This document shows positions 113 through 9,555 of a stretch of 10,110 bases of DNA, piece after piece. Source of the DNA: Acholeplasmatales bacterium (GTDB lineage Bacteria > Bacillota_I > Bacilli_A > Acholeplasmatales > Anaeroplasmataceae); NCBI GenBank assembly GCA_024696565.1, contig JAILGR010000133.1:1-10110 (forward strand), read 5' to 3'. The first letter of the stretch is position 1, and every line of letters begins with the position of its first letter. The notes under the pieces were generated by a model. The model made no database searches, was not told the DNA's origin, and saw only the letters and a program-made list of their open reading frames with translations. Made by a program: the position numbers and the translations under genes.

Positions 113-140
113 TTGACACTTTTGCTTTTTTTTATATAAT
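113..140 (+). promoter_or_regulatory. Consensus housekeeping-sigma promoter for the operon
   Basis: A perfect -35 box TTGACA (113-118) and a perfect -10 box TATAAT (135-140) are separated by 16 bases of T-rich spacer. Transcription should start near 146-148, leaving a 5' leader of about 50 nt before the first ACP start at 197. Such a perfect promoter suggests strong expression. No other equally good promoter is seen in the window. The DNA upstream (1-112) has stops in all three forward frames within the first 44 bases and contains no recognisable gene. Confidence 0.8.
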
Positions 141-196: not shown

Positions 197-433
197 ATGG
201 AAGAAATTAAGCAACAATTAAAGGATTTCATCGTATCTGAACTTGGTGTTGATGCTGATGAATTACAATTCGATACTCCATTATTTGGTGAAGGTATCGG
301 TCTTGATTCAATTGATTCTATCGAAATCATCTCTTTCGTTGATGAAGCTTTCGGTGTTTCTATGAATGGTGTTGATAAAGCAAATTTCCTTTCAATTGAT
401 ACTATTGCAGCATACGTTGCTGATCATCAGTAA
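197..433 (+). CDS. Acyl carrier protein 1 (polyene/PKS-like signature)
   Basis: This 78-residue acidic carrier protein holds growing acyl chains as thioesters on a phosphopantetheine arm. The attachment site is Ser38 in the DSID motif. The stretch before it (LFGEGIGLDSID, residues 29-40) resembles carrier proteins of aryl-polyene type II systems more than the usual FAS pattern DLGADSLD; this is a comparison from memory. The start is set by AGGAG at 181-185, 11 bases upstream. It is the first gene after the promoter and is followed by a hairpin that may cap much of the transcript. Its codons differ from the rest of the operon: 5 of 6 Phe codons are TTC and 5 of 9 Ile codons are ATC, while later genes mostly use TTT and ATT/ATA. 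That bias is typical of very highly expressed genes. The carrier family is certain; its pathway (fatty acid or polyene) is not. Confidence 0.93.
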   Translation: MEEIKQQLKDFIVSELGVDADELQFDTPLFGEGIGLDSIDSIEIISFVDEAFGVSMNGVDKANFLSIDTIAAYVADHQ

Positions 434-441
434 GAAAGATT

Positions 442-469
442 TTGGCATCCCTTTTTAAAGGGGTGCTAA
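442..469 (+). terminator. Hairpin after ACP1: leaky terminator, attenuator or mRNA-processing stem
   Basis: GCATCCCTT (445-453) pairs with AAGGGGTGC (458-466) through one G-U pair around a small T/A loop, and TTG/TAA extends the base of the stem. The bases that follow (467-480) are A/T-rich but lack an uninterrupted T run, so termination is probably partial. The next gene starts at 518 without a convincing promoter of its own and must rely on readthrough. The likely effect is more ACP1 mRNA than mRNA for the downstream enzymes, or protection of the short ACP1 message. Confidence 0.6.
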
Positions 470-504
470 TTATTTGCTTTATTGTGTAAAGTCTGCTTTA
501 CTTT

Positions 505-510
505 GGAGGA
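505..510 (+). promoter_or_regulatory. Ribosome binding site fixing the double-ketosynthase start
   Basis: GGAGGA lies 7 bases before the ATG at 518. The same frame is open back to a TTG at 482, but that would add 12 residues (MCKVCFTLEDKK) unlike any ketosynthase N-terminus and would translate through this ribosome site. The ATG at 518 is therefore preferred. Confidence 0.85.
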
Positions 511-517
511 TAAAAAA

Positions 518-2905
518 ATGACAGATAATAAAAATCGTTGTGTTATTACTGGTTTGGGTGTAATAAACGCAATTGGAAATAATGTAGAAGAATCTTGGAA
601 CAATGCCTTAAAGGGTGTTTCAGGAATTAAAAATACAAATACAGTAGATACTAAAGATTGTTATGCAACTTTAGCTGCTGAAGTAAATTATAAGGAATTA
701 GATTCAATTCCTAATACTGAAAAGATGGATAGAGTTTCTAAGCTATGTATTAAAGCTACTTTAGAAGCATTAGAAGATGCAAAATTAAAGGATTTTTCAG
801 GTAGTGAAAGAGTATCAGTTATTATGGGTAGCTGCGTTGGTGGAGCTGTTTCTATTGATCATTACTATAGAACAGATAAAAATAAAGATGACGTTTTAAA
901 AATGCCTATTTCTGCAGTAGCAGCTAACGTTGCACATTATGTTCATGCTGGTGGTGTTGTAACAAATATTGGTAATGCATGTGCTGCTGGTACAATTTCT
1001 ATTGCATATGCTTGTGATTTAATTCGTGCTGGTAAGGCTGATGTTGTTATTGCAGGTGGTGCTGATGCATTTGCATCTGTTCCATATGCGGGCTTCTTAG
1101 CATTACATGCCCTAGATTCAAATCCATGTAGTCCATTCAATCATTGTAGTGGTATTACACTTGGCGAAGGATCTGGTGCTGTTATTGTTGAATCATATGA
1201 ACATGCTAAAGCTAGAGGTGCTAAGGCATATTGTGAAGTATTAGGTTCTGGTGTATCATCAGATGCTCACCATATCACTGCTCCAAGAGAAGATGGTGAA
1301 GGTCAAATGAATGCTATTAACTGGGCAATCAATACTTCAGGTGTTAAAAAGAATGAAATTGGTTATATCAATGCCCATGGTACTGGTACAGCTAAAAATG
1401 ATAATGCTGAATTCTTATCACTTCATACAGTATTTGATGGTGAAAATGATAATTTATCAGTTTCATCTACAAAAGCAATGGTTGGTCACTGTTTAGGTGC
1501 TGCTGGTGCTATTGAAGCTGTATTCTCTATTAAAGCTTTAACTGAAAATAAGGTTCCTGCAACACTTGGTTATAGTGATGAGGACTTAGTTACATTAAAG
1601 GATAAAGCTGGTAAGATTGACTTTATTCCTAATAATAGTCATGATAAGAACTTAGATACAGTTATGTCTAACTCTTTCGCTTTTGGTGGAAATAATGCAT
1701 CAATTATTTTCTCTAAAAAGGAAGGCGATGTTAATACTAAAAATGATTGTGGCAAGGTATATGTTACTGGTTTAGGTATGGTAACTCCACTTGCTAGTGG
1801 CAAAGCAAATTATGTTAATGCAATTAATAATGGCGTATCAATTGATAATGAAAATCCAAGATCAAATGCCTCAGTAGAAGATTATGTAGAATTTGGTTTA
1901 AAGCCATTATATAGAAAACATGATAATTTATCTCATTTACAAGTAGTATCTGGTATGCAAGCATTAAAGGATGCAAATATTACAGTAACTGATGATAATG
2001 CTACTGACATTGGTATTGTAGTAGGTTCATCTGAAGGTGCTTTAGGTACTTGCTTAGAGTTTACAGAAAATATTGTAGAGAAGGGCTGTGCTAATGGTTC
2101 AGCATTTAAATTCCCTAACACTGTATATAATGCTGCGGGTGGATATTTATCAATTTGTTCAGGAATTAAAGGTTATAATGTAACAGTTACTAATGGTAAT
2201 CAATCTGGTTTACAATCAGTAGCTTATGCTACAAACATTATTCGTCAAGGAAAAGAAAATTATGTTTTAGCAACTGGTACTGATGAAAATATTGATTATA
2301 TTAAAGAAGTATTTACAAAGCTTGATTATGTTGCAGATGAAGTTGTTAAGCCATTTGCAGGTAGTGATAAATTTACATTATCTGATGGTTCTATTACAGT
2401 TGTATTAGAAAATGATAAAAATGCTAAGGCTAGAGGTGCTAAAAAATATGCTGAGGTATTAGGATATGGTATGGCAACTAAGGCAGTTGAATATGGTAAA
2501 TTATCTGGTACTAATGACGCTTTAAAGAAAGCAATTGAATTAGCACTTGAAGATGCAAATTTAACTTTAGCTGATATTGATACAGTTTCAGGATTTGCTT
2601 GTGGTATGAACAAAGTAGATACAATTGAATTAGATGTATTGAATGATTTATTTGGTGATAACTTATCTAATATTAATTTATTAGAAGTTAAAGATCATGT
2701 TGGTGAAGCAAGAGCAGCTGCAGCAAGCTTAAGCTTAGCTCATGCATCACTTATGTTAGCTGGAGAAATTGAATCTGATAACGGATATAAATTTACAAAT
2801 GGTAGTGTTCAACAAGCTAAAGTTTTAGCTAAGGATATGAAAAATGTATTATGTATCTCTTATGCAATTGGTGGTACATATACTGCAGTAATTATTACAA
2901 AGTAA
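518..2905 (+). CDS. Fused ketosynthase / chain-length-factor-like protein
   Basis: This 795-residue protein is about twice the length of FabF (about 410). Residues ~7-400 form an intact beta-ketoacyl-ACP synthase: nucleophile Cys155 (NACAAG), His287 (HGTGT), Lys319 and His324 (VGHCLGAAGA), and a C-terminal SFAFGG motif. It would condense malonyl-ACP with an acyl chain. Residues ~413-795 are a second thiolase-fold copy without the triad: the Cys position reads Asn561 followed by Gln562, the first His is Phe693, the second His is Glu730, while the Lys (725) is kept. Loss of these residues with the fold retained is the hallmark of chain-length factors, which pair with an active ketosynthase and shape its product cavity. 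Both halves share a nearly identical AKARGAK..EVLG segment (230-245 and 636-651). I infer one polypeptide supplying both halves of the usual KS-CLF heterodimer. The start follows GGAGGA at 505-510. The KS assignment is firm; the product is unknown. Confidence 0.93.
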   Translation: MTDNKNRCVITGLGVINAIGNNVEESWNNALKGVSGIKNTNTVDTKDCYATLAAEVNYKELDSIPNTEKMDRVSKLCIKATLEALEDAKLKDFSGSERVSVIMGSCVGGAVSIDHYYRTDKNKDDVLKMPISAVAANVAHYVHAGGVVTNIGNACAAGTISIAYACDLIRAGKADVVIAGGADAFASVPYAGFLALHALDSNPCSPFNHCSGITLGEGSGAVIVESYEHAKARGAKAYCEVLGSGVSSDAHHITAPREDGEGQMNAINWAINTSGVKKNEIGYINAHGTGTAKNDNAEFLSLHTVFDGENDNLSVSSTKAMVGHCLGAAGAIEAVFSIKALTENKVPATLGYSDEDLVTLKDKAGKIDFIPNNSHDKNLDTVMSNSFAFGGNNASIIFSKKEGDVNTKNDCGKVYVTGLGMVTPLASGKANYVNAINNGVSIDNENPRSNASVEDYVEFGLKPLYRKHDNLSHLQVVSGMQALKDANITVTDDNATDIGIVVGSSEGALGTCLEFTENIVEKGCANGSAFKFPNTVYNAAGGYLSICSGIKGYNVTVTNGNQSGLQSVAYATNIIRQGKENYVLATGTDENIDYIKEVFTKLDYVADEVVKPFAGSDKFTLSDGSITVVLENDKNAKARGAKKYAEVLGYGMATKAVEYGKLSGTNDALKKAIELALEDANLTLADIDTVSGFACGMNKVDTIELDVLNDLFGDNLSNINLLEVKDHVGEARAAAASLSLAHASLMLAGEIESDNGYKFTNGSVQQAKVLAKDMKNVLCISYAIGGTYTAVIITK

Positions 2906-2917
2906 AAGGAGAATTAT

Positions 2918-3646
2918 ATGGTCGCAATAGTAACAGGGGCTTCCCGTGGAATTGGTAAGGCATGTGCCTTAAGACTTGCTAAAGATGGATATACCGTAGT
3001 AATTAACTACGCTTCAAATGAAGCTAAGGCACAAGAGGTTTTAGCTGAAGTTAGAGCTTTAGGTTCTGATGGTATGATTTATAAAGCTGATGTTTCTAAA
3101 AAGGCAGAGGCTAACCAAATGGTTAAAGATGTAGCTAAAGCATATGGCTCTATTGATGTTTTAGTTAATAATGCTGGTATCGTTAGAGATGAATTATTAT
3201 TAACTTTAACTGAGGAAAATCTAGATAAGTGTTTTGATTTAAATGTTAAGGGTTATTTCTATATGGCTCAAGCATGTGCACTTAAGATGTTCCGTAAGAA
3301 AAAAGGTGTAATTATTAATATGTCTTCAGTTTCTGGTTCATTCTCATTACCAGGACAAAGTGTTTATGGTGCAACTAAAGGTGCTATTAACACTATGACT
3401 AAGACATTAGCTAAGGAATTAGCTCCATATGGTATTAGAGTAAATGCTTGTGCTCCAGGCTTTATTGAAACTGAAATGCTAGAGGCTATTCCACAAGAAA
3501 AGAAAGAAGAGTACTTAAGAGTTATTCCTCAACATAAGTTAGGAACTACTGCTGATATTGCTGCTGTTGTATCATTCCTTGCTTCTGATGAATCAAAATA
3601 TATGACAGGTCAAATTCTTACAATTGACGGAGGATTGTCACTATGA
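2918..3646 (+). CDS. fabG: 3-oxoacyl-ACP reductase FabG
   Basis: This 242-residue short-chain dehydrogenase is the usual FabG length. It reduces the 3-oxoacyl-ACP made by the ketosynthase to 3-hydroxyacyl-ACP with NADPH in the cytoplasm. Visible motifs are the Rossmann TGASRGIG loop (6-13), NNAG (84-87), and the catalytic set Asn109, Ser137, Tyr150 and Lys154 (YGATK), followed by the family's VNACAPGFIETEM segment. The start is set by AAAGGAG just after the preceding stop codon, 12 bases downstream of the ketosynthase gene. Its TGA stop overlaps the fabZ ATG (ATGA), which couples translation of the two. Placement directly behind the ketosynthase supports an ACP-linked substrate rather than another dehydrogenase role. 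Confidence 0.95.
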   Translation: MVAIVTGASRGIGKACALRLAKDGYTVVINYASNEAKAQEVLAEVRALGSDGMIYKADVSKKAEANQMVKDVAKAYGSIDVLVNNAGIVRDELLLTLTEENLDKCFDLNVKGYFYMAQACALKMFRKKKGVIINMSSVSGSFSLPGQSVYGATKGAINTMTKTLAKELAPYGIRVNACAPGFIETEMLEAIPQEKKEEYLRVIPQHKLGTTADIAAVVSFLASDESKYMTGQILTIDGGLSL

Positions 3647-4089
3647 TTTTAATTAATGAGATTAATGAAAGAATTAAACAACGTCCACCATTTCAAATGA
3701 TTGATCGTGTTGTTGAAATTGAACCAAATGTTAGTGCTACAGGTATTAAGTGTGTATCAGTTAATGAACCATACTTTGTTGGTCATTTCCCTGGTTCACC
3801 AATTATGCCAGGTGTATTAATTATTGAATCATGTGCTCAATTATGTTCATTAGTATTTGAAGCAGATGGCACTGATACAGATAATATTTATGTATTATTA
3901 AAGGTTGATGGCTTTAAGTTTGTTAAGGCTGTTATACCTGGAGATGTTTTAAATGTTTGTGTAACAAAGACTAAAACATTAGGACCTATTACTACCTTTG
4001 ATTGTAAGGTATTAGTAGATGGAAATATTTATTCTAAGGGTACTTTAGCATTTACTAAAGTAGGTAAGGATACAATTTATACTAGATAA
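3643..4089 (+). CDS. fabZ: 3-hydroxyacyl-ACP dehydratase FabZ
   Basis: This 148-residue hotdog-fold dehydratase removes water from 3-hydroxyacyl-ACP to give trans-2-enoyl-ACP. The signature HFPGSPIMPGVL carries catalytic His48, and Glu62 is the second catalytic residue. The N-terminal PPFQMIDRV matches the FabZ entrance motif, usually PFLLIDRV. Length is normal for FabZ, and there is nothing to suggest the isomerising FabA type. The start overlaps the end of fabG by ATGA and has GGAGGA at 3629-3634. It is the only dehydratase in the window. With no enoyl reductase beside it, its enoyl product could be passed on unreduced. Confidence 0.95.
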   Translation: MILINEINERIKQRPPFQMIDRVVEIEPNVSATGIKCVSVNEPYFVGHFPGSPIMPGVLIIESCAQLCSLVFEADGTDTDNIYVLLKVDGFKFVKAVIPGDVLNVCVTKTKTLGPITTFDCKVLVDGNIYSKGTLAFTKVGKDTIYTR

Positions 4090-4101: not shown

Positions 4102-4842
4102 ATGTGGGGTAATAATAGACGCAAGAAAGTTCTTGTGTTGAATGGAAGTCCAAAACAAAATAAAAGCTCAACCATGGTTATTACCAATGCTTTCTTACAA
4201 GGTATGAAAGAATATGAGGATTGTGACATTGAAGTTATCAATGTCCAATCCTTACATATTATCCCATGTACAGGATGCTTATCTTGTTGGGGTCATACTG
4301 AAGGTGATTGTGTAATTAAAAATGATGATGTATTAAAGGTTAAAGAAAAAATATTAGATTCAGATATTATTATCGAATCTTTCCCATTATTTTTCTTTGG
4401 AATGCCTGGTGTATTAAAGCTATTAACTGATAGATTATTATCAATGATGTTAACATATAGAGGGCATAAACCACCAGAGGATGGTTCATCATTCCATGGA
4501 CTTAGATATATGGATACTAATAAGAGATTTATTTTAATATCTACTTGTGCTTACACAGAAGTAGATAAGGTTTATGATTCTGTAATATCTGAGTTTGATT
4601 ATATTTGTGGTAAGGATAGTTATTTTAAAATATTTGTACCCCAAGTAAAGACTTTAGTAGATATAAAAAATGAAAATAAGTTAAACCGCTTCTTAACTAA
4701 ATATATAGAAGCTGGTAAGACTTTTATGGAAATAGGATATTTAGATAAGGATCAACAAGCCTCTTTATCTAAGCCTCCTTTTTCAGAAGGCGCATATAAA
4801 ATATTCTTAGATCAATTTTGGCAGGAGGAAAAAACACGATGA
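4102..4842 (+). CDS. Flavodoxin-fold NAD(P)H/FMN oxidoreductase with four-cysteine (Isf-like) motif
   Basis: This 246-residue protein of the NADPH-dependent FMN reductase / iron-sulfur flavoprotein group has no signal peptide or membrane segment. Residues 10-24 hold the FMN phosphate loop (VLVLNGSPKQ followed by SST), and a SFPLFFFGMPG stretch matches the family's flavin-contacting loop. Cys56, Cys59, Cys62 and Cys70 form C-X2-C-X2-C-X7-C, the compact spacing known from archaeal Isf proteins, which bind a 4Fe-4S cluster. A cluster is therefore plausible here but unproven, since related proteins keep some of these cysteines without one. The start follows AGGGTG at 4091-4096, 12 bases after fabZ. 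The stop overlaps the ACP2 start by ATGA, and the ACP2 ribosome site lies inside its last codons, so the gene is truly part of the operon. Its role is unknown: it could reduce an acyl intermediate, supply electrons, or serve an unrelated redox task. Confidence 0.85.
   Translation: MWGNNRRKKVLVLNGSPKQNKSSTMVITNAFLQGMKEYEDCDIEVINVQSLHIIPCTGCLSCWGHTEGDCVIKNDDVLKVKEKILDSDIIIESFPLFFFGMPGVLKLLTDRLLSMMLTYRGHKPPEDGSSFHGLRYMDTNKRFILISTCAYTEVDKVYDSVISEFDYICGKDSYFKIFVPQVKTLVDIKNENKLNRFLTKYIEAGKTFMEIGYLDKDQQASLSKPPFSEGAYKIFLDQFWQEEKTR
4823..4828 (+). promoter_or_regulatory. Ribosome binding site for ACP2 inside the flavoprotein gene
   Basis: AGGAGG lies 10 bases before the ATG at 4839, within the last codons of the flavoprotein gene. 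It rules out the in-frame TTG at 4818, which would add seven residues with no carrier-protein character and whose reading frame would run through this site. Confidence 0.85.
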
Positions 4843-5078
4843 AATGTAGCTTTGAAGATATTAAAAAATTAATAATTGAGTCTGCAAATGTCGATAAAGA
4901 GATTCTTCCAAACTCTATTTTAAAAACAGATTTAGGAATTGATAGTATTTATGCGGTAGAGATGATTTTAGCTCTAGAGGAAAAATTTGGTATTCAAATC
5001 GAATTAGATGAAATGGATACTATGATGATGGTAAGTCAAGTAGTAGATGTAGTAAACAGAAAGCTAGGTGAAAAGTAA
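4839..5078 (+). CDS. Acyl carrier protein 2
   Basis: This 79-residue carrier protein has its predicted phosphopantetheine site at Ser36 in DLGIDSIYAVEM. The family's helix pattern is present (an acidic helix II followed by EEKFGIQIE). The motif is closer to ordinary FAS/PKS carriers than ACP1, and the sequences are clearly different, so this is not a recent copy. Codons are AT-ending like the neighbouring genes, unlike ACP1. It is coupled to the flavoprotein gene upstream (ATGA) and to accB downstream (TAATG). Two distinct carriers in one operon suggest a division of labour, for example a starter or transfer carrier and an elongation carrier. That division is inference. Three consecutive Met residues occur in the region of helix III (DTMMMVS). 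Confidence 0.92.
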   Translation: MKCSFEDIKKLIIESANVDKEILPNSILKTDLGIDSIYAVEMILALEEKFGIQIELDEMDTMMMVSQVVDVVNRKLGEK

Positions 5079-5503
5079 TGAACTTTGAAAACATTAAAAA
5101 GCTTATGGAAATGTTAGAAAATTCTAATTTATCTTATTTAGAAGTTGAAGAAGATGGCGTTAGAATTTGTTTAGATAAAAATGGTGGTGTAAGAACTAAT
5201 AATACAAGCACTACTAAAAATGAGATTAAAGAAGATAGTAAAAAAGAAAATGAAGTTATAGCAACAGGTAAGGAAATTACATCTCCACTTGTAGGTACTT
5301 TCCATGCTGCACCTTACAAGGATGCAAAACCTTTTGTATCCTTAGGTGATAAGGTAAAGAAAGGACAAAAGCTTTGTATCGTTGAGGCTATGAAGGTTAT
5401 GAATGAGATTACATCACCATATGATGGTGTTATAGTTGATATTTGTGCAAAAGAAAATGATGTAGTTGAATTTGGTAAAAAGCTTTTTGTAATTGGTGAA
5501 TAA
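5078..5503 (+). CDS. accB: Biotin carboxyl carrier protein of acetyl-CoA carboxylase
   Basis: This 141-residue AccB has a short N-terminal helical region (1-33), a Lys/Asn/Thr/Glu-rich linker (about 34-66) and a C-terminal biotinyl domain (about 67-141). Lys106 in EAMKVMNEI is the biotin attachment site. The protein shuttles carboxybiotin between AccC and the AccA/AccD transferase. The domain begins with ITSPLVGTFH and contains the 'thumb'-like insertion SPLVGTFHAAPYKDAKPFV typical of acetyl-CoA carboxylase carriers. The start shares one base with the ACP2 stop (TAATG) and has AGGTGA upstream. The biotin ligase that would modify it is encoded at the end of the same operon. Confidence 0.95.
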   Translation: MNFENIKKLMEMLENSNLSYLEVEEDGVRICLDKNGGVRTNNTSTTKNEIKEDSKKENEVIATGKEITSPLVGTFHAAPYKDAKPFVSLGDKVKKGQKLCIVEAMKVMNEITSPYDGVIVDICAKENDVVEFGKKLFVIGE

Positions 5504-5504
5504 T

Positions 5505-6872
5505 ATGTTTAAAAAGATATTAATCGCTAACCGTGGAGAGATTGCTGTAAGAATCATTAGAGCTTGTAAAGAGCTTGGTATTCAAACTGTAGCTGTTTAT
5601 TCTAAAGCTGATGAATCAGCTATTCATAAAGAATTAGCAACAGAAGCCATTTGTATAGGTGATGCAAATCCTAAAGATTCTTATTTAAATATTGAAAATA
5701 TAATTACTGCAGCTTGTCTATCTGGGTGTGATGCTATTCACCCAGGCTTTGGTTTTTTATCAGAAAATCCACAGTTTGCTAGAATGGTAGAAAAGTGCGG
5801 TTTAACATTTATTGGACCAAACCCAGGTGTTATGGAGAAGATGGGTAATAAAAATGAAGCTATTCAGTCAATGATTGAAGCTGGAGTGCCAGTTGTACCT
5901 GGTTCTCATAAGGCTGTTAATTTAGAAGAAGGTTTAGCTTGTGCTAAGGAAATTGGCTTTCCAGTATTAATTAAAGCTTCAGCCGGTGGTGGTGGCAAAG
6001 GTATTAGAATTGTTGATTCTGAAGAAGACTTTAAAGATTTATTTAATGAAGCTAAAGAAGAAGCATTAAAATTCTTTGCTAATGATGAAGTTTATGTTGA
6101 AAAGTTTGTTAAAAACCCTAAGCATATTGAAGTACAACTAATGTGTGATAAGCATGGTAATGCTATTCATTTATTTGAAAGAAATTGTAGTTTACAAAGA
6201 AGAAATCAAAAAATGATTGAAGAAGCTCCATGTATTTCTATTAGCCAAAATTTAAAGAATAAATTATATTCTTCAGCAATTAAGGCTTGTAAATTCATTG
6301 GTTATGATTCTGTTGGTACTATTGAATTTTTAGTAGATGATTCAGAAAACTATTATTTTATTGAAATGAACACTAGAATTCAAGTTGAACACTGTGTAAC
6401 AGAAGCTGTTACTAATGTTGATATTGTTAAGAATATGATTAAGATTGCTTATGGCTTACCTTTACCATTTAAGCAAGAAGATATTAAATTATATGGTTAT
6501 GCAATGGAGTGTAGAATTAATGCCGAAGACCCTAAGAATGGCTTTTGTCCAAATCCTGGTAAGATTAAATTCATTAATACACCAGGTGGTATGGGCGTAA
6601 GAATTGATTCTGCAGTATATCCTGGATATACTATTTCTCCATATTATGATTCAATGATTTTAAAGGTTATTTGTTTTGCTAAAACTAGACTTGAATGTAT
6701 TAGAAAGATGCGTCAAGCTCTAGAAGAATTAATAATTGATGGTATTAAAACTACTGTTGAATTTGATTATGTACTAATTCATCATCCAACCTTTATTTTA
6801 GGACATTATGATACTTCATTTATTGAAAGCTTTATAGGAGAATTAAAGGAAAATGGAAAACTCATTCAATAA
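5505..6872 (+). CDS. accC: Biotin carboxylase subunit of acetyl-CoA carboxylase
   Basis: This 455-residue ATP-grasp enzyme, normal length for AccC, carboxylates the biotin on AccB using ATP and bicarbonate. Visible are the N-terminal KILIANRGEIAVRIIRACKELG, the ATP-binding glycine loop with Lys157 and KASAGGGGKG (157-166), NCSLQRRNQKMIEEAP, and the active-site strand EMNTRIQVEH (287-296) with Glu287, Asn289, Arg291 and Glu295 in the positions of E. coli AccC offset by one. There is no fused carrier domain, so it is the separate-subunit type rather than pyruvate carboxylase. The ATG at 5505 is chosen over an upstream in-frame TTG at 5493 because the protein then begins MFKKILIANRGE, as in the family. 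It has only a weak ribosome site (GGTGA) and starts one base after accB, so translation is probably coupled. Its last 20 bases overlap accD. Confidence 0.96.
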   Translation: MFKKILIANRGEIAVRIIRACKELGIQTVAVYSKADESAIHKELATEAICIGDANPKDSYLNIENIITAACLSGCDAIHPGFGFLSENPQFARMVEKCGLTFIGPNPGVMEKMGNKNEAIQSMIEAGVPVVPGSHKAVNLEEGLACAKEIGFPVLIKASAGGGGKGIRIVDSEEDFKDLFNEAKEEALKFFANDEVYVEKFVKNPKHIEVQLMCDKHGNAIHLFERNCSLQRRNQKMIEEAPCISISQNLKNKLYSSAIKACKFIGYDSVGTIEFLVDDSENYYFIEMNTRIQVEHCVTEAVTNVDIVKNMIKIAYGLPLPFKQEDIKLYGYAMECRINAEDPKNGFCPNPGKIKFINTPGGMGVRIDSAVYPGYTISPYYDSMILKVICFAKTRLECIRKMRQALEELIIDGIKTTVEFDYVLIHHPTFILGHYDTSFIESFIGELKENGKLIQ

Positions 6873-7728
6873 AAGAAAACAAGAAATACTTGAATTTAAT
6901 AATGCAATGGAAGAGTTGAATCTAAGAAAAAGATATGAAACAACTATTCCTAAAGAAATTCCTGATGATTTAATTGTTAAATGTCCTTCATGTCAAAAAT
7001 TCATTTTAAAGGACAATTATATCTTAGAACATAAGGTATGCCCTTATTGTAATTATCATGGTAGATTAACAGCTAGAGAAAGAATTATTGATGTCTTAGA
7101 TTTAGGATATGAAGAATTATTCTCTAGATTAAAAGAAAAATATACTGATTTCCCTGATTATCAAAATAAGCTTGATAAAGCTAAAAAAGATACTAATTCT
7201 GATGAATCAGTAACTTGTGTTCATGGAAAAATTGATGGAATTGAGTGCTGTGTTGGCGTAATGGATTCATTCTTTATGATGGGTTCTATGGGATCTTTAT
7301 GTGGTGAACGTATAACAAGATTAATTGAATTTGCTGAAAAGAAGGATTTACCATTAATTTTGTTTACAACATCAGGTGGAGCAAGAATGCAAGAAGGTGT
7401 AATATCTTTATTTCAAATGGCAAAAACATCAGCTGCCTTATCTAGATTTAAGGAAAAAGGATTATATATTTCAGTATTAACAGATCCAACTACAGGTGGT
7501 GTTTCAGCATCTTTTGCGTCACTTGCCGATATTACAATTGCTGAACCTCATGCCTTAATTGGTTTTGCTGGAAAAAGAGTAATTGAAAGAACAATTAAAG
7601 AAACATTACCTAAAGAATTCCAAACAGCGGAATTCTTACTTGAAAAAGGTTATATTGATATGATTTGTGATAGAAAGGAGCTTAAGAAGACTTTAGCATT
7701 ATTGTTAAGACTTCATAATTATAGATAA
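6853..7728 (+). CDS. accD: Acetyl-CoA carboxylase carboxyltransferase subunit beta
   Basis: This 291-residue AccD, with AccA, transfers the carboxyl group from biotin to acetyl-CoA to form malonyl-CoA. An N-terminal zinc ribbon is present (Cys44, Cys47, Cys63, Cys66), followed by the crotonase-fold transferase domain with TTSGGARMQEG, TDPTTGGVSASFASL and IGFAGKRVIE segments. Length is typical of bacterial AccD. The start overlaps the 3' end of accC by 20 bases and follows AAAGGA at 6845-6850. It is a stand-alone subunit, with accA one base further on, so the two partners should be made in equal amounts. Confidence 0.96.
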   Translation: MENSFNKRKQEILEFNNAMEELNLRKRYETTIPKEIPDDLIVKCPSCQKFILKDNYILEHKVCPYCNYHGRLTARERIIDVLDLGYEELFSRLKEKYTDFPDYQNKLDKAKKDTNSDESVTCVHGKIDGIECCVGVMDSFFMMGSMGSLCGERITRLIEFAEKKDLPLILFTTSGGARMQEGVISLFQMAKTSAALSRFKEKGLYISVLTDPTTGGVSASFASLADITIAEPHALIGFAGKRVIERTIKETLPKEFQTAEFLLEKGYIDMICDRKELKKTLALLLRLHNYR

Positions 7729-7729
7729 T

Positions 7730-8653
7730 ATGATATTAGAAGAAAATGAAAAAAAGATTAGTCTTCTTGAACAAGAATTATTATCTTTAGATCAAAATGA
7801 TCCAAAGGCTCCTTTGTTAAAAGATAAATTAAAAGCTTTAAAGGTTGAAACATATTCTAATTTATCTGCTTGGGATAGAGTATTAATTGCTAGATCAGAA
7901 AAAAGAATAAAAGCTAAAGCTTTAATTGATAAGCTAATTACAAATTTTGTTGAATTACATGGAGATCAATATTATCAAGAAGATTATTCTATTATTTCAG
8001 GTATTGGTTACCTAAAAGATAAACCAGTAACTATCTTAGCTCAGGCTAAGGGTGAAAATTTAAATGATAATTTAAAAAGAAATTTTGGTATGACTTCTCC
8101 AGAAGGATTTAGAAAAACATTAAGATTAGCTAAAGAAGCTGAGAAGTTTAAAAGACCAATTATTACTATTGTAGATACTTCAGGTGCTTACCCTGGTAAA
8201 GGGGCAGAAGAGCGTGGTCAAGCTAGAGCGATTGCCGAAAACTTATTAGAGTTTTCAAAGCTTAAAACTCCTGTTGTTTGTATAATATTATCAGAAGGTG
8301 GTTCTGGTGGAGCTTTAGCACTTTCAGTTTCAGATTATATTTATATGTTTGAAAATGCTATATATTCTGTTTTATCACCAGAAGGATTCTCATCAATATT
8401 ATTTAAAGATAAGGTTCCTGTTTCAGAAGTATCAGAGGTTATGAAATTAACATCTAAAGATTTATATGAATATGGTATTGCTGATGAAATCATCAAAGAA
8501 CCTTTAGGTGGTATTAGATATGTTGGCGATGATTTTGCAGCCAATCTATTAGATAAGCTTTATAATAAAATAGAAGAATTAGAAAAACTTAAAGAAGAAG
8601 ATTTATTAAATAATAGATATAATAAATTCAGAAGAATCGGAAGTGATTTATAA
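7730..8653 (+). CDS. accA: Acetyl-CoA carboxylase carboxyltransferase subunit alpha
   Basis: This 307-residue AccA is the partner of AccD in the carboxyltransferase tetramer. The N-terminal helical region (about 1-50, with LEQELLSLDQND and AWDRVLIARS) precedes the transferase core, which shows VDTSGAYPGKGAEERGQA and the glycine-rich oxyanion region EGGSGGALALSVSD followed by YSVLSPEGFSSILFKD. Length is normal. It starts one base after the accD stop and lacks a clear ribosome site, so translation is probably coupled to accD; the nearby ATG at 7746 is out of frame. Its stop shares one base with the fabD start (TAATG). Confidence 0.96.
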   Translation: MILEENEKKISLLEQELLSLDQNDPKAPLLKDKLKALKVETYSNLSAWDRVLIARSEKRIKAKALIDKLITNFVELHGDQYYQEDYSIISGIGYLKDKPVTILAQAKGENLNDNLKRNFGMTSPEGFRKTLRLAKEAEKFKRPIITIVDTSGAYPGKGAEERGQARAIAENLLEFSKLKTPVVCIILSEGGSGGALALSVSDYIYMFENAIYSVLSPEGFSSILFKDKVPVSEVSEVMKLTSKDLYEYGIADEIIKEPLGGIRYVGDDFAANLLDKLYNKIEELEKLKEEDLLNNRYNKFRRIGSDL

Positions 8654-9555
8654 TGAAAATTGCCTTTTTGTTTGCCGGTCAAGGTAGTCAATATGTTGGT
8701 CAAGGTAAAGATTTTTATGATAATTTAGATTTTGCTAAAGAAGCATATGATAAATATTTAGATATTAAAGAAATTTGTTTTGAAGATAAAAATTCATTAA
8801 TTAATCAAACTATGTATGCTCAACCAGCTATGTTACTTACAGGTTATGTAATTGCTAAAGCATTAGAGAGTGAAGGAATTAAACCTGAATATACTTGTGG
8901 ACTATCTTTAGGTGAATATACTGCTTTAGCTTTTAATGATTGTTGGTGTCTTGATGCTAGTATGGATATTATTAGAAATAGAGGAAGCATTATGCAAAAT
9001 GCCTTACCTTTAGGTACTACTAAGATGGCTGCAGTTATTGGTCTTGATAGAGAAAAAGTTAATGAAGGTATTAAGGTTAAAAGTGGTGTATGTGAAGTTG
9101 CTAACTATAACTGTCCTGGACAAATTGTTATTACAGGAGATAATGAAGGTGTTGATTTAGCAATGGAAAATATGAAGTCTTTAGGAGCTTTAAAAGTAGT
9201 AGAATTAAATGTTTCTGGAGCTTTCCATTCATCATTTTTAATTGATGCATCTAAAAAGTTAAGATTAGTATTAGATAAATATAGTCCAAATATGCCAAAA
9301 TATAAGATGGTTTATAATGTATCAGGAAAAGAAGAAAATAGACCTTTAAATGATATATTAGAAGATCAGATTCATTCATCTGTATATTTTGAAGATACTA
9401 TTAAATACTTATTAGATAATGGTGTTGATACATTTGTTGAAATTGGACCAGGTAAAACATTAAGTGGCTTTGTTAAAAGATGTTCAAGAAAGGTAAATAT
9501 TTATACAGTAACTGATTATGCTTCATATCTAGATACAGTGAAGGCTTTAAAATGA
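8653..9555 (+). CDS. fabD: Malonyl-CoA:ACP transacylase FabD
   Basis: This 300-residue FabD moves malonyl from CoA to the carrier proteins and so links the carboxylase to the ketosynthase. It shows the N-terminal FAGQGSQ motif (7-13), nucleophile Ser85 in GLSLGEYTAL, Arg110 in RNRGSIMQ for the malonyl carboxylate, catalytic His192 in SGAFHS, and a C-terminal EIGPGKTLSGFVKR. The residue before the nucleophile is Leu rather than the His of E. coli (GHSLGE), a variant I believe occurs in other Firmicutes. It is translationally coupled to accA (TAATG) and to the biotin ligase (ATGA). It is a stand-alone transacylase with no fused domains, and the only one in the window. Confidence 0.95.
   Translation: MKIAFLFAGQGSQYVGQGKDFYDNLDFAKEAYDKYLDIKEICFEDKNSLINQTMYAQPAMLLTGYVIAKALESEGIKPEYTCGLSLGEYTALAFNDCWCLDASMDIIRNRGSIMQNALPLGTTKMAAVIGLDREKVNEGIKVKSGVCEVANYNCPGQIVITGDNEGVDLAMENMKSLGALKVVELNVSGAFHSSFLIDASKKLRLVLDKYSPNMPKYKMVYNVSGKEENRPLNDILEDQIHSSVYFEDTIKYLLDNGVDTFVEIGPGKTLSGFVKRCSRKVNIYTVTDYASYLDTVKALK

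What the first reader, a model, noticed from the sequence alone, without database searches (positions are those of the whole stretch)
518..2905. Single-chain ketosynthase/chain-length-factor fusion
Seen: two thiolase-fold halves in one 795-residue protein. The first half has Cys155, His287, Lys319 and His324. In the second, ungapped local alignment gives Asn561 (with Gln562 next), Phe693, Lys725 and Glu730 at those positions. Known: KS-CLF pairs of type II PKS and aryl-polyene synthases are normally two separate subunits, and classic CLFs often have Gln at the Cys position. Inference: this is a covalent KS-CLF with a fixed 1:1 ratio and a product cavity set by the dead half. A catalytic fusion placed in a FAS-like operon is unusual.
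Basis: partly seen in the sequence, partly recalled or inferred. Interest (0 to 1): 0.85.

Follow-up and report, generated by a model that had tools for sequence, protein, structure and literature searches.

The report
Fused KS-CLF in FabH-less fatty-acid operon
One protein joins a working carbon-chain-building enzyme to a dead copy of itself, and in most of the related bacteria that carry it no other enzyme of this kind was found, so a polyketide-style machine may have taken over fatty-acid building there.

Summary
Window 518-2905 encodes one 795-aa chain: a ketosynthase half with Cys155/His287/Lys319/His324 and a dead half with Asn561-Gln562/Phe693/Lys725/Glu730. It is no joining error: 21 of 60 genomes searched (own included) and two Lachnospira eligens records carry it; more distant fusions occur in Priestia and Streptomyces. 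The dead halves form one clade, weakly beside type II PKS chain-length factors. Their segment equivalent to FabF 121-160 is their most conserved part, while the live halves lost 7 residues there: the pattern expected if the dead half completes the live half's pocket. Single-chain KS-CLF is known from PUFA synthases; this stand-alone form in a dissociated operon is a variant. The setting is the surprise: an operon with ACPs, KR, DH, ACC, FabD and BirA. 18 of 21 carriers show no FabH and no other FabF; all 17 other FabD-positive genomes have FabH. Three carriers keep an old fab cluster without FabD, so their only FabD is the fusion operon's. Ten carriers lack every enoyl reductase tested. Best reading: a KS-CLF replaced FabF and FabH. 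A polyene product in fatty-acid auxotrophs is not excluded. No structure model could be obtained.

The parts
113..140 (+). sigma-70-like promoter TTGACA-16-TATAAT before ACP1
   Evidence: 12 of 12 match, but 57 promoter-like sites in the window against 60.1 expected in shuffles; only this one is 12 of 12
197..433 (+). acyl carrier protein ACP1 (GLDSIDSIE)
   Evidence: PF00550; best NCBIfam PRK09184, below its cut-off
442..469 (+). hairpin between ACP1 and the fusion, possible partial terminator
   Evidence: z -3.4; hairpins at the same place in the 4 other genomes folded, z -1.75 to -4.24
518..1717 (+). active ketosynthase half (residues 1-400; Cys155 at 980-982, His287 1376-1378, Lys319 1472-1474, His324 1487-1489)
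1754..2902 (+). dead CLF-like half (residues 413-795; Asn561 2198-2200, Gln562 2201-2203, Phe693 2594-2596, Lys725 2690-2692, Glu730 2705-2707)
2069..2188 (+). segment of the dead half (residues 518-557) equivalent to FabF 121-160, most conserved part of the dead half
2918..3646 (+). FabG-type ketoreductase
3643..4089 (+). FabZ-type dehydratase
4102..4842 (+). flavodoxin-fold oxidoreductase with CX2CX2CX7C (possible Fe-S flavoprotein); candidate redox partner or enoyl reductase
4839..5078 (+). second acyl carrier protein ACP2
5078..5503 (+). AccB biotin carboxyl carrier protein
5505..6872 (+). AccC biotin carboxylase
6853..7728 (+). AccD carboxyltransferase beta
7730..8653 (+). AccA carboxyltransferase alpha
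8653..9555 (+). FabD malonyl-CoA:ACP transacylase, the only FabD found in the genome
9552..10110 (+). BirA biotin-protein ligase, cut by the contig end

Best explanation
The protein is a single-chain KS-CLF. The first half carries out the decarboxylative condensation; the second half is a dead partner that docks on it within the chain and completes its acyl pocket (inferred). It is the condensing enzyme of a self-contained type II acyl-ACP synthase: AccABCD and BirA give malonyl-CoA, FabD loads the ACPs, KS-CLF extends, FabG and FabZ reduce and dehydrate, and FabK where present, or else the flavoprotein, reduces the enoyl group (inferred). In 18 of 21 carriers it is the only FabF-type enzyme found and FabH is not found, so if those cells make fatty acids it must replace both. 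Priming is then most likely by malonyl-ACP decarboxylation to acetyl-ACP at the KS-CLF (inferred). Shown: residues, fusion, gene set and co-occurrence. Not shown: activity, product, docking.
For: Intact triad in one half only. Dead halves one clade (100/96; 97). Opposite conservation of the two halves at FabF 121-160 and a 7-residue loss in 16 of 16 close-family live halves. Operon order conserved in nine other genomes. FabH in 3 of 21 fusion genomes against 17 of 17 other FabD-positive genomes. One FabD per FabD-positive genome, on the fusion contig in 16 of 21 including all three dual genomes, whose canonical cluster lacks FabD while canonical-only G017, G028, G033 keep it. PlsX of one clade in the L. 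eligens operon and in fusion genomes. Acetyl-ACP primes FabB/FabF (passages of PMC8666670).
Against: No structure or assay. The CLF kinship is weak (81/86; 72) and FabF kinship is not rejected. Ten of 21 carriers have none of FabK, FabV or a FabI-like protein, so saturation is unexplained there. Several relatives have no FAS genes at all, so auxotrophy is common, and DegV proteins are in 60 of 60 genomes. Three dual genomes (and G429 by FabF) keep a canonical system beside the fusion. Second PlsX only in 9 of 21. Carriers are close kin, so counts are not independent.
Confidence: 0.55

Rival explanations
1. A highly reducing type II PKS-like pathway: KS-CLF with KR and DH makes a polyene or other special acyl chain, and the hosts are fatty-acid auxotrophs that use outside fatty acids through FakAB and PlsX.
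For: Live halves group with an aryl-polyene KS (96/95; 98). No known enoyl reductase in 10 of 21 carriers, four of them 96-99% complete. FAS-less relatives are frequent, DegV is in 60 of 60. Distant fused relatives sit in PKS-like clusters.
Against: Full ACC, FabD and BirA in the operon; the only FabD serves the canonical cluster of dual genomes; linked PlsX leads to glycerolipid. No aryl starter, thioesterase or transport genes in the operon.
Confidence: 0.3
2. Salvage elongation: outside fatty acids become acyl-phosphate by FakAB, PlsX2 turns them into acyl-ACP, and the KS-CLF operon lengthens them, so no FabH is needed.
For: PlsX2 follows DegV and FakA in the own genome and G019, and FakA in G020; PlsX stands in the L. 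eligens operon.
Against: Second PlsX in only 9 of 21 carriers. PlsX alone does not tell direction.
Confidence: 0.12
3. A tandem FabF duplication whose second copy is decaying and has no role; the first half acts as an ordinary FabF homodimer.
For: N half scores as FabF (TIGR03150 499.8 bits, cut-off 493.75); grouping of the dead halves with FabF is not rejected.
Against: Dead halves are kept full length with invariant Gln562, Phe693, Glu730 and a conserved block; they form a clade across Bacillota and Streptomyces.
Confidence: 0.06
4. An assembly or sequencing error joined two genes.
For: The window is one small contig of a fragmented MAG.
Against: The same frame in 20 other genomes and two L. 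eligens records, with no stop inside.
Confidence: 0.01

Closest known systems
KS-CLF didomain of PUFA synthases (PfaC; crystal structure of the Moritella marina didomain)
   Same: KS and CLF covalently joined, KS first; passages of PMC9702510
   Different: Part of a megasynthase with further domains; here 795 aa with no other domain in an operon of single enzymes. 6RIW (ORF10, 1014 aa; that it is this didomain is recalled) matches the dead-half profile at 76 bits against 165 for the best chain
Type II PKS KS-CLF heterodimers, including polyene or aryl-polyene systems (6KXD is the ishigamide KS, as recalled)
   Same: Active KS plus dead KS homolog; KR and DH beside it; live halves group with an aryl-polyene KS
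   Different: Two separate proteins there; classic Gln at the Cys column, here one residue later; full ACC, FabD and BirA in this operon
PDB 9S5H chains B and C (KS-like pair, title not known to me)
   Same: Chain C is the best solved match of the dead-half profile (165.4 bits, only 0.9 bit ahead of a FabF), chain B fifth for the live half
   Different: Two chains, not one
FabF/FabH of type II FAS
   Same: Live half passes the FabF equivalog cut-off; operon carries FabD, FabG, FabZ, ACC
   Different: Dead second half; FabH not found in 18 of 21 carriers
MadA/MadB malonyl-ACP decarboxylases
   Same: A known way to start fatty-acid synthesis without FabH through acetyl-ACP (passages of PMC8666670)
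   Different: Hot-dog proteins; none of the operon proteins was so named; not searched for in the rest of the genomes

Membership tests
KS-CLF (type II PKS condensing pair) | one half with Cys-His-His and Lys, the partner without the catalytic Cys and His | tested here: met
   one member (L004) has Cys at 561 but not the His residues
KS-CLF (type II PKS condensing pair) | dead partner is of CLF descent | tested here: inconclusive
   beside CLFs at 81/86 and 72; FabF kinship not rejected, AU p 0.295
KS-CLF (type II PKS condensing pair) | Gln at the Cys column of the CLF | tested here: not met
   invariant Gln one residue later; Ala, Ser, Asn or Cys at the column. Of three Streptomyces CLFs one has Glu, so the feature is not universal
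KS-CLF (type II PKS condensing pair) | the two halves dock with a cavity at the interface | not tested
   structure server busy in 18 requests; only indirect support
PUFA synthase PfaC | KS-CLF within a multidomain megasynthase | tested here: not met
   two KS domains only
FabF (TIGR03150) | score over the equivalog cut-off | tested here: met
   499.8 bits against 493.75 for the whole protein; a narrow pass that two stretches contribute to
FabF (TIGR03150) | single active domain, homodimer | tested here: not met
   two domains, one dead; oligomeric state not testable
Type II fatty acid synthase (de novo) | ACC, FabD, ACP, elongating KS, KR, DH present | tested here: met
Type II fatty acid synthase (de novo) | FabH | tested here: not met
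   none in own genome; 3 of 21 fusion genomes
Type II fatty acid synthase (de novo) | known enoyl reductase (FabK, FabI or FabV) | tested here: inconclusive
   FabK in 11 of 21 fusion genomes; none in 10 including own (84.8% complete)
Iron-sulfur flavoprotein (Isf-like) | flavodoxin fold and compact four-Cys motif | tested here: met
   Pfam; CX2CX2CX7C in 13 of 13 rows, (that this motif marks the family is recalled); cofactors not testable

The most novel reading that the evidence does not exclude
In this lineage a polyketide-type KS-CLF, arriving as a transferable operon, displaced FabF and FabH step by step (canonical only; then both, with FabD lost from the old cluster; then fusion only), and works with an unrecognised Fe-S flavoprotein enoyl reductase, so that membrane fatty acids are made by a self-priming single-chain KS-CLF.
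Probability: 0.3. Interest if true: 0.82.

Novelty: new variant of a known kind. Interest (0 to 1): 0.6.

Why it matters
If right, it is a natural case of a polyketide condensing pair doing the work of FabF and FabH, which makes testable how priming and chain length are set in FAS against PKS. The single chain gives one self-contained protein for such tests, and the flavoprotein would be a lead to a new enoyl reductase.

Tried and rejected
Assembly error: rejected. Intact second active site: rejected. PUFA megasynthase fragment: rejected, no further domain. A true FabI: E. coli FabI as query gave no hit above 79 bits or 33% identity; in the own genome the best hit is the operon FabG at 25%. 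FabV: 6 of 60 genomes, none with the fusion. Orphan FabKs as one lineage travelling with the fusion: not supported. FabK and second PlsX go together in 18 fusion-only genomes (7 of 8 against 2 of 10, p 0.015 uncorrected), too weak to build on. FabT-like operator TTTGANNNTCAAA: 3 matches, 51 of 200 shuffles reach that. Viral contigs: no relative. Phylum sample: 4 of 392, all own genus. Genome contigs: 4 loci, one of them a weak 69-residue match.

Rows left out: APE_CLF from the tree; APE_CLF, Persi_CLF and nine close relatives; G020's split second PlsX. L088 was fetched and not used. Reference KS/CLF proteins come from E. coli and plasmid records only. The L. eligens chromosome was not searched, so whether it also has a canonical FAS is not known here. 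G429 was tested for the fusion and FabF only. Mad-type decarboxylases were not searched for.

Literature: nine searches in an open-licence library; none listed a stand-alone fused KS-CLF in a FAS-type operon. Passages only were seen of PMC13311259, PMC10132072, PMC10698177, PMC9702510 and PMC8666670; all others in listings only.

Full report
WHAT IS THERE. The window is the whole of contig C143 of a 1.28-Mb, 259-contig, 84.8%-complete genome. All operon genes lie on the + strand: ACP1, the 795-aa fusion, FabG, FabZ, a flavodoxin-fold oxidoreductase, ACP2, AccB, AccC, AccD, AccA, FabD, BirA. A 12-of-12 sigma-70-like promoter stands at 113-140, though promoter-like sites in the window are not above chance in number. 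Named loci L031, L032 and L033 are titled Bacillales and Acholeplasmatales MAGs; L033's contig has the same length (21,738) and gene layout as G018:C143, so the own genus probably goes under Acholeplasmatales at NCBI.

THE OBSERVATION. In 22 distinct close members (21 genomes and L. eligens) Cys155, His287, Lys319 and His324 are present in 22 of 22. In the second half position 561 is Ala 10, Ser 8, Asn 3, Cys 1; Gln562 22 of 22; Phe693 21 of 21, Lys725 20 of 21 and Glu730 21 of 21 in rows long enough. The one Cys (L004, G019) is not accompanied by the His residues.

A REAL, CONSERVED FUSION. Of 60 genomes (own included) 21 carry it, 18 full length and 3 cut by contig ends, with no stop inside; in the family 22 of 55; in a sample of the phylum 4 of 392, all of the own genus. 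L. eligens carries it at 63% on a plasmid of about 0.63 Mb in two records. More distant single-chain proteins are on Priestia megaterium plasmids (32-34%) and on one Streptomyces plasmid examined (788 aa).

ORIGIN OF THE HALVES. In a 61-row tree all fused C halves, Streptomyces included, are one clade (100/96), beside type II PKS CLFs (81/86); fused N halves group together (89/53) and, with an aryl-polyene KS and a Persicobacter CLF-like row, stand apart from FabF (96/95) (the tool warns of long branches). With long rows left out the C-half clade holds (97), the CLF link is weak (72) and C halves plus FabF as one clade is not rejected (AU p 0.295); one clade of N halves is not rejected (p 0.776). 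The best solved match of the C-half profile is 9S5H chain C, 0.9 bit ahead of a FabF, and chain B ranks fifth for the N-half profile; I could not learn the entry's title.

A CONSERVATION ARGUMENT FOR AN INTERNAL PAIR. Mapped on E. coli FabF, 16 C halves have 19% invariant columns overall but 55% and 80% at FabF 121-140 and 141-160, and 10-30% in the blocks of the old active site; the N halves show the opposite (20% and 25% there, 75% at 161-180). Between the FabF Gly106 and Cys164 columns the close-family N halves have 51 residues in 16 of 16, where 18 of 18 fused C halves and 9 of 9 FabF rows have 58; Priestia and Streptomyces N halves have 58 and 56. From recalled KS structures this segment lies at the dimer interface and reaches the partner's pocket. 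So the dead half keeps what serves its partner and the live half has shortened it. This is inference from sequence; no model could be made.

OPERON AND PARTNERS. The order ACP1 to BirA is whole in nine other genomes, with an iron alcohol dehydrogenase inserted in G016 and a 187-aa ORF in G007. L. eligens has ACP1, fusion, FabG, FabZ, FabD, AccD, AccA, flavoprotein and PlsX. The flavoprotein has four invariant Cys in 13 of 13 rows. A close ortholog (E 2.6e-88 or better) is in 20 of 21 fusion genomes, the 21st (G025) having a contig that ends just past FabG, and in none of the other 39, where hits reach 55 bits at most.

NO FABH, NO OTHER FABF. FabH (190 bits or more) is in 3 of 21 fusion genomes and 17 of 17 other FabD-positive genomes (Fisher p 4e-8, not corrected for kinship). 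G021 (64% complete, no fusion, no FabD found) has a partial FabH. The same three fusion genomes (G010, G018, G034) are the only ones of the 21 with a separate FabF; G429, in the family search, also has one and was not tested for FabH. Six fusion-only genomes are 96-100% complete, so gaps alone do not explain it.

SHARED FABD. Each of the 38 FabD-positive genomes of 60 has one FabD. In fusion genomes it lies on the fusion contig in 16 of 21 (in the other five on another contig), including all three dual genomes. Canonical-only G017, G028 and G033 have FabD between FabK and FabG; the dual genomes have FabH-FabK-FabG-FabF with FabD missing there. So, unless an unassembled copy exists, the canonical FAS of dual genomes uses the fusion operon's FabD. 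This suggests a series from canonical only, through dual, to fusion only.

ENOYL REDUCTION. Of the 17 non-fusion FabD-positive genomes 15 have FabK and the other two (G044, G048) FabV. Of fusion genomes 11 have FabK and 10 have none of FabK, FabV or a FabI-like protein; four of these ten are 96-99% complete (p 0.0008 uncorrected). Either the flavoprotein or an unknown enzyme reduces, or the product stays unsaturated. This is the main point against a plain FAS reading.

LINK TO LIPIDS. A second PlsX is in 9 of 21 fusion genomes and 3 of 39 others. Eight of the nine and the L. eligens operon PlsX form one clade (100/100) apart from the first PlsX of twelve genomes. In the own genome and G019 it follows DegV and FakA, in G020 FakA. 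DegV is in 60 of 60 genomes, so uptake of fatty acids cannot be excluded.

MECHANISM AND ODDS. Shown: sequence features, gene set, co-occurrence. Inferred: docking of the halves; priming by malonyl-ACP decarboxylation (acetyl-ACP is a competent primer for FabB/FabF, passages of PMC8666670); reduction by FabK or flavoprotein; release as acyl-ACP to PlsX. Odds: KS-CLF as fatty-acid synthase core 0.55, polyene or special lipid 0.3, salvage elongation 0.12, decaying duplicate 0.06; these overlap in part.

AGAINST WHAT IS KNOWN. Covalent KS-CLF is known from PUFA synthases (passages of PMC9702510), heterodimeric KS-CLF from type II PKS. A catalogue of type II PKS clusters reports KS-CLFs in Firmicutes and gut metagenomes and has no 'fused' or 'fusion' in its text (one passage of PMC10132072 seen). 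A stand-alone single chain as the only condensing enzyme found beside ACC, FabD and BirA was not met in the nine searches listed. I call it a new variant of a known kind.

Noticed in passing
window 434-510; L054, L045, L033, L048 same place: A hairpin of changing sequence lies between ACP1 and the fusion in 5 of 5 genomes folded (z -1.75 to -4.24); it may let ACP1 be made in excess.
   Followed up: partly
window 486-501; L054, L033, L045: A palindrome GTAAAGTnnnnCTTTAC-like lies just before the fusion's ribosome site in the window, L054 and L033, and imperfectly in L045; not seen in L048 (by eye). Possible operator.
   Followed up: no
L090 (G000:C183) 475-4022; L092; L098: PlsX2 stands in a DegV-FakA-PlsX row in the own genome and G019, FakA-PlsX in G020.
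   Followed up: partly
L084 2732-5098 (NZ_CP108708.1): A Streptomyces plasmid has a 788-aa fused KS-KS beside two further KS-family genes, AcpS, a KAS III-type gene and a FAD monooxygenase; His stands at its second Cys column.
   Followed up: partly
L036 13998-16427 (pBM500): Priestia megaterium carries a distant fused KS-KS with FabZ, FabG, FabD, a PPTase, an ACP, a thioesterase and a GcvT-like gene; product unknown.
   Followed up: no
L060 and L061 (G005:C177, C188): G005 has an unfused KS (29% to the live half) with FabG-like gene, and FabK with FabZ-like gene on another contig; no FabD or FabH was found (78% complete). A different acyl system.
   Followed up: no
window 2918-3646 and relatives: E. 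coli FabI hits the operon FabG (E about 1e-19 in the own genome) better than the FabG of canonical clusters (about 1e-9 in G017 or G018).
   Followed up: no
L055, L056, L057, L058, L059, L063, L064, L099: Orphan FabK genes of eight fusion-only genomes lie away from the operon, seven of the eight right after a protein of 250-277 aa (Exo_endo_phos in the one scanned, L055).
   Followed up: partly
L004 (G019), second half: One member has Cys back at the 561 position without the His residues.
   Followed up: no
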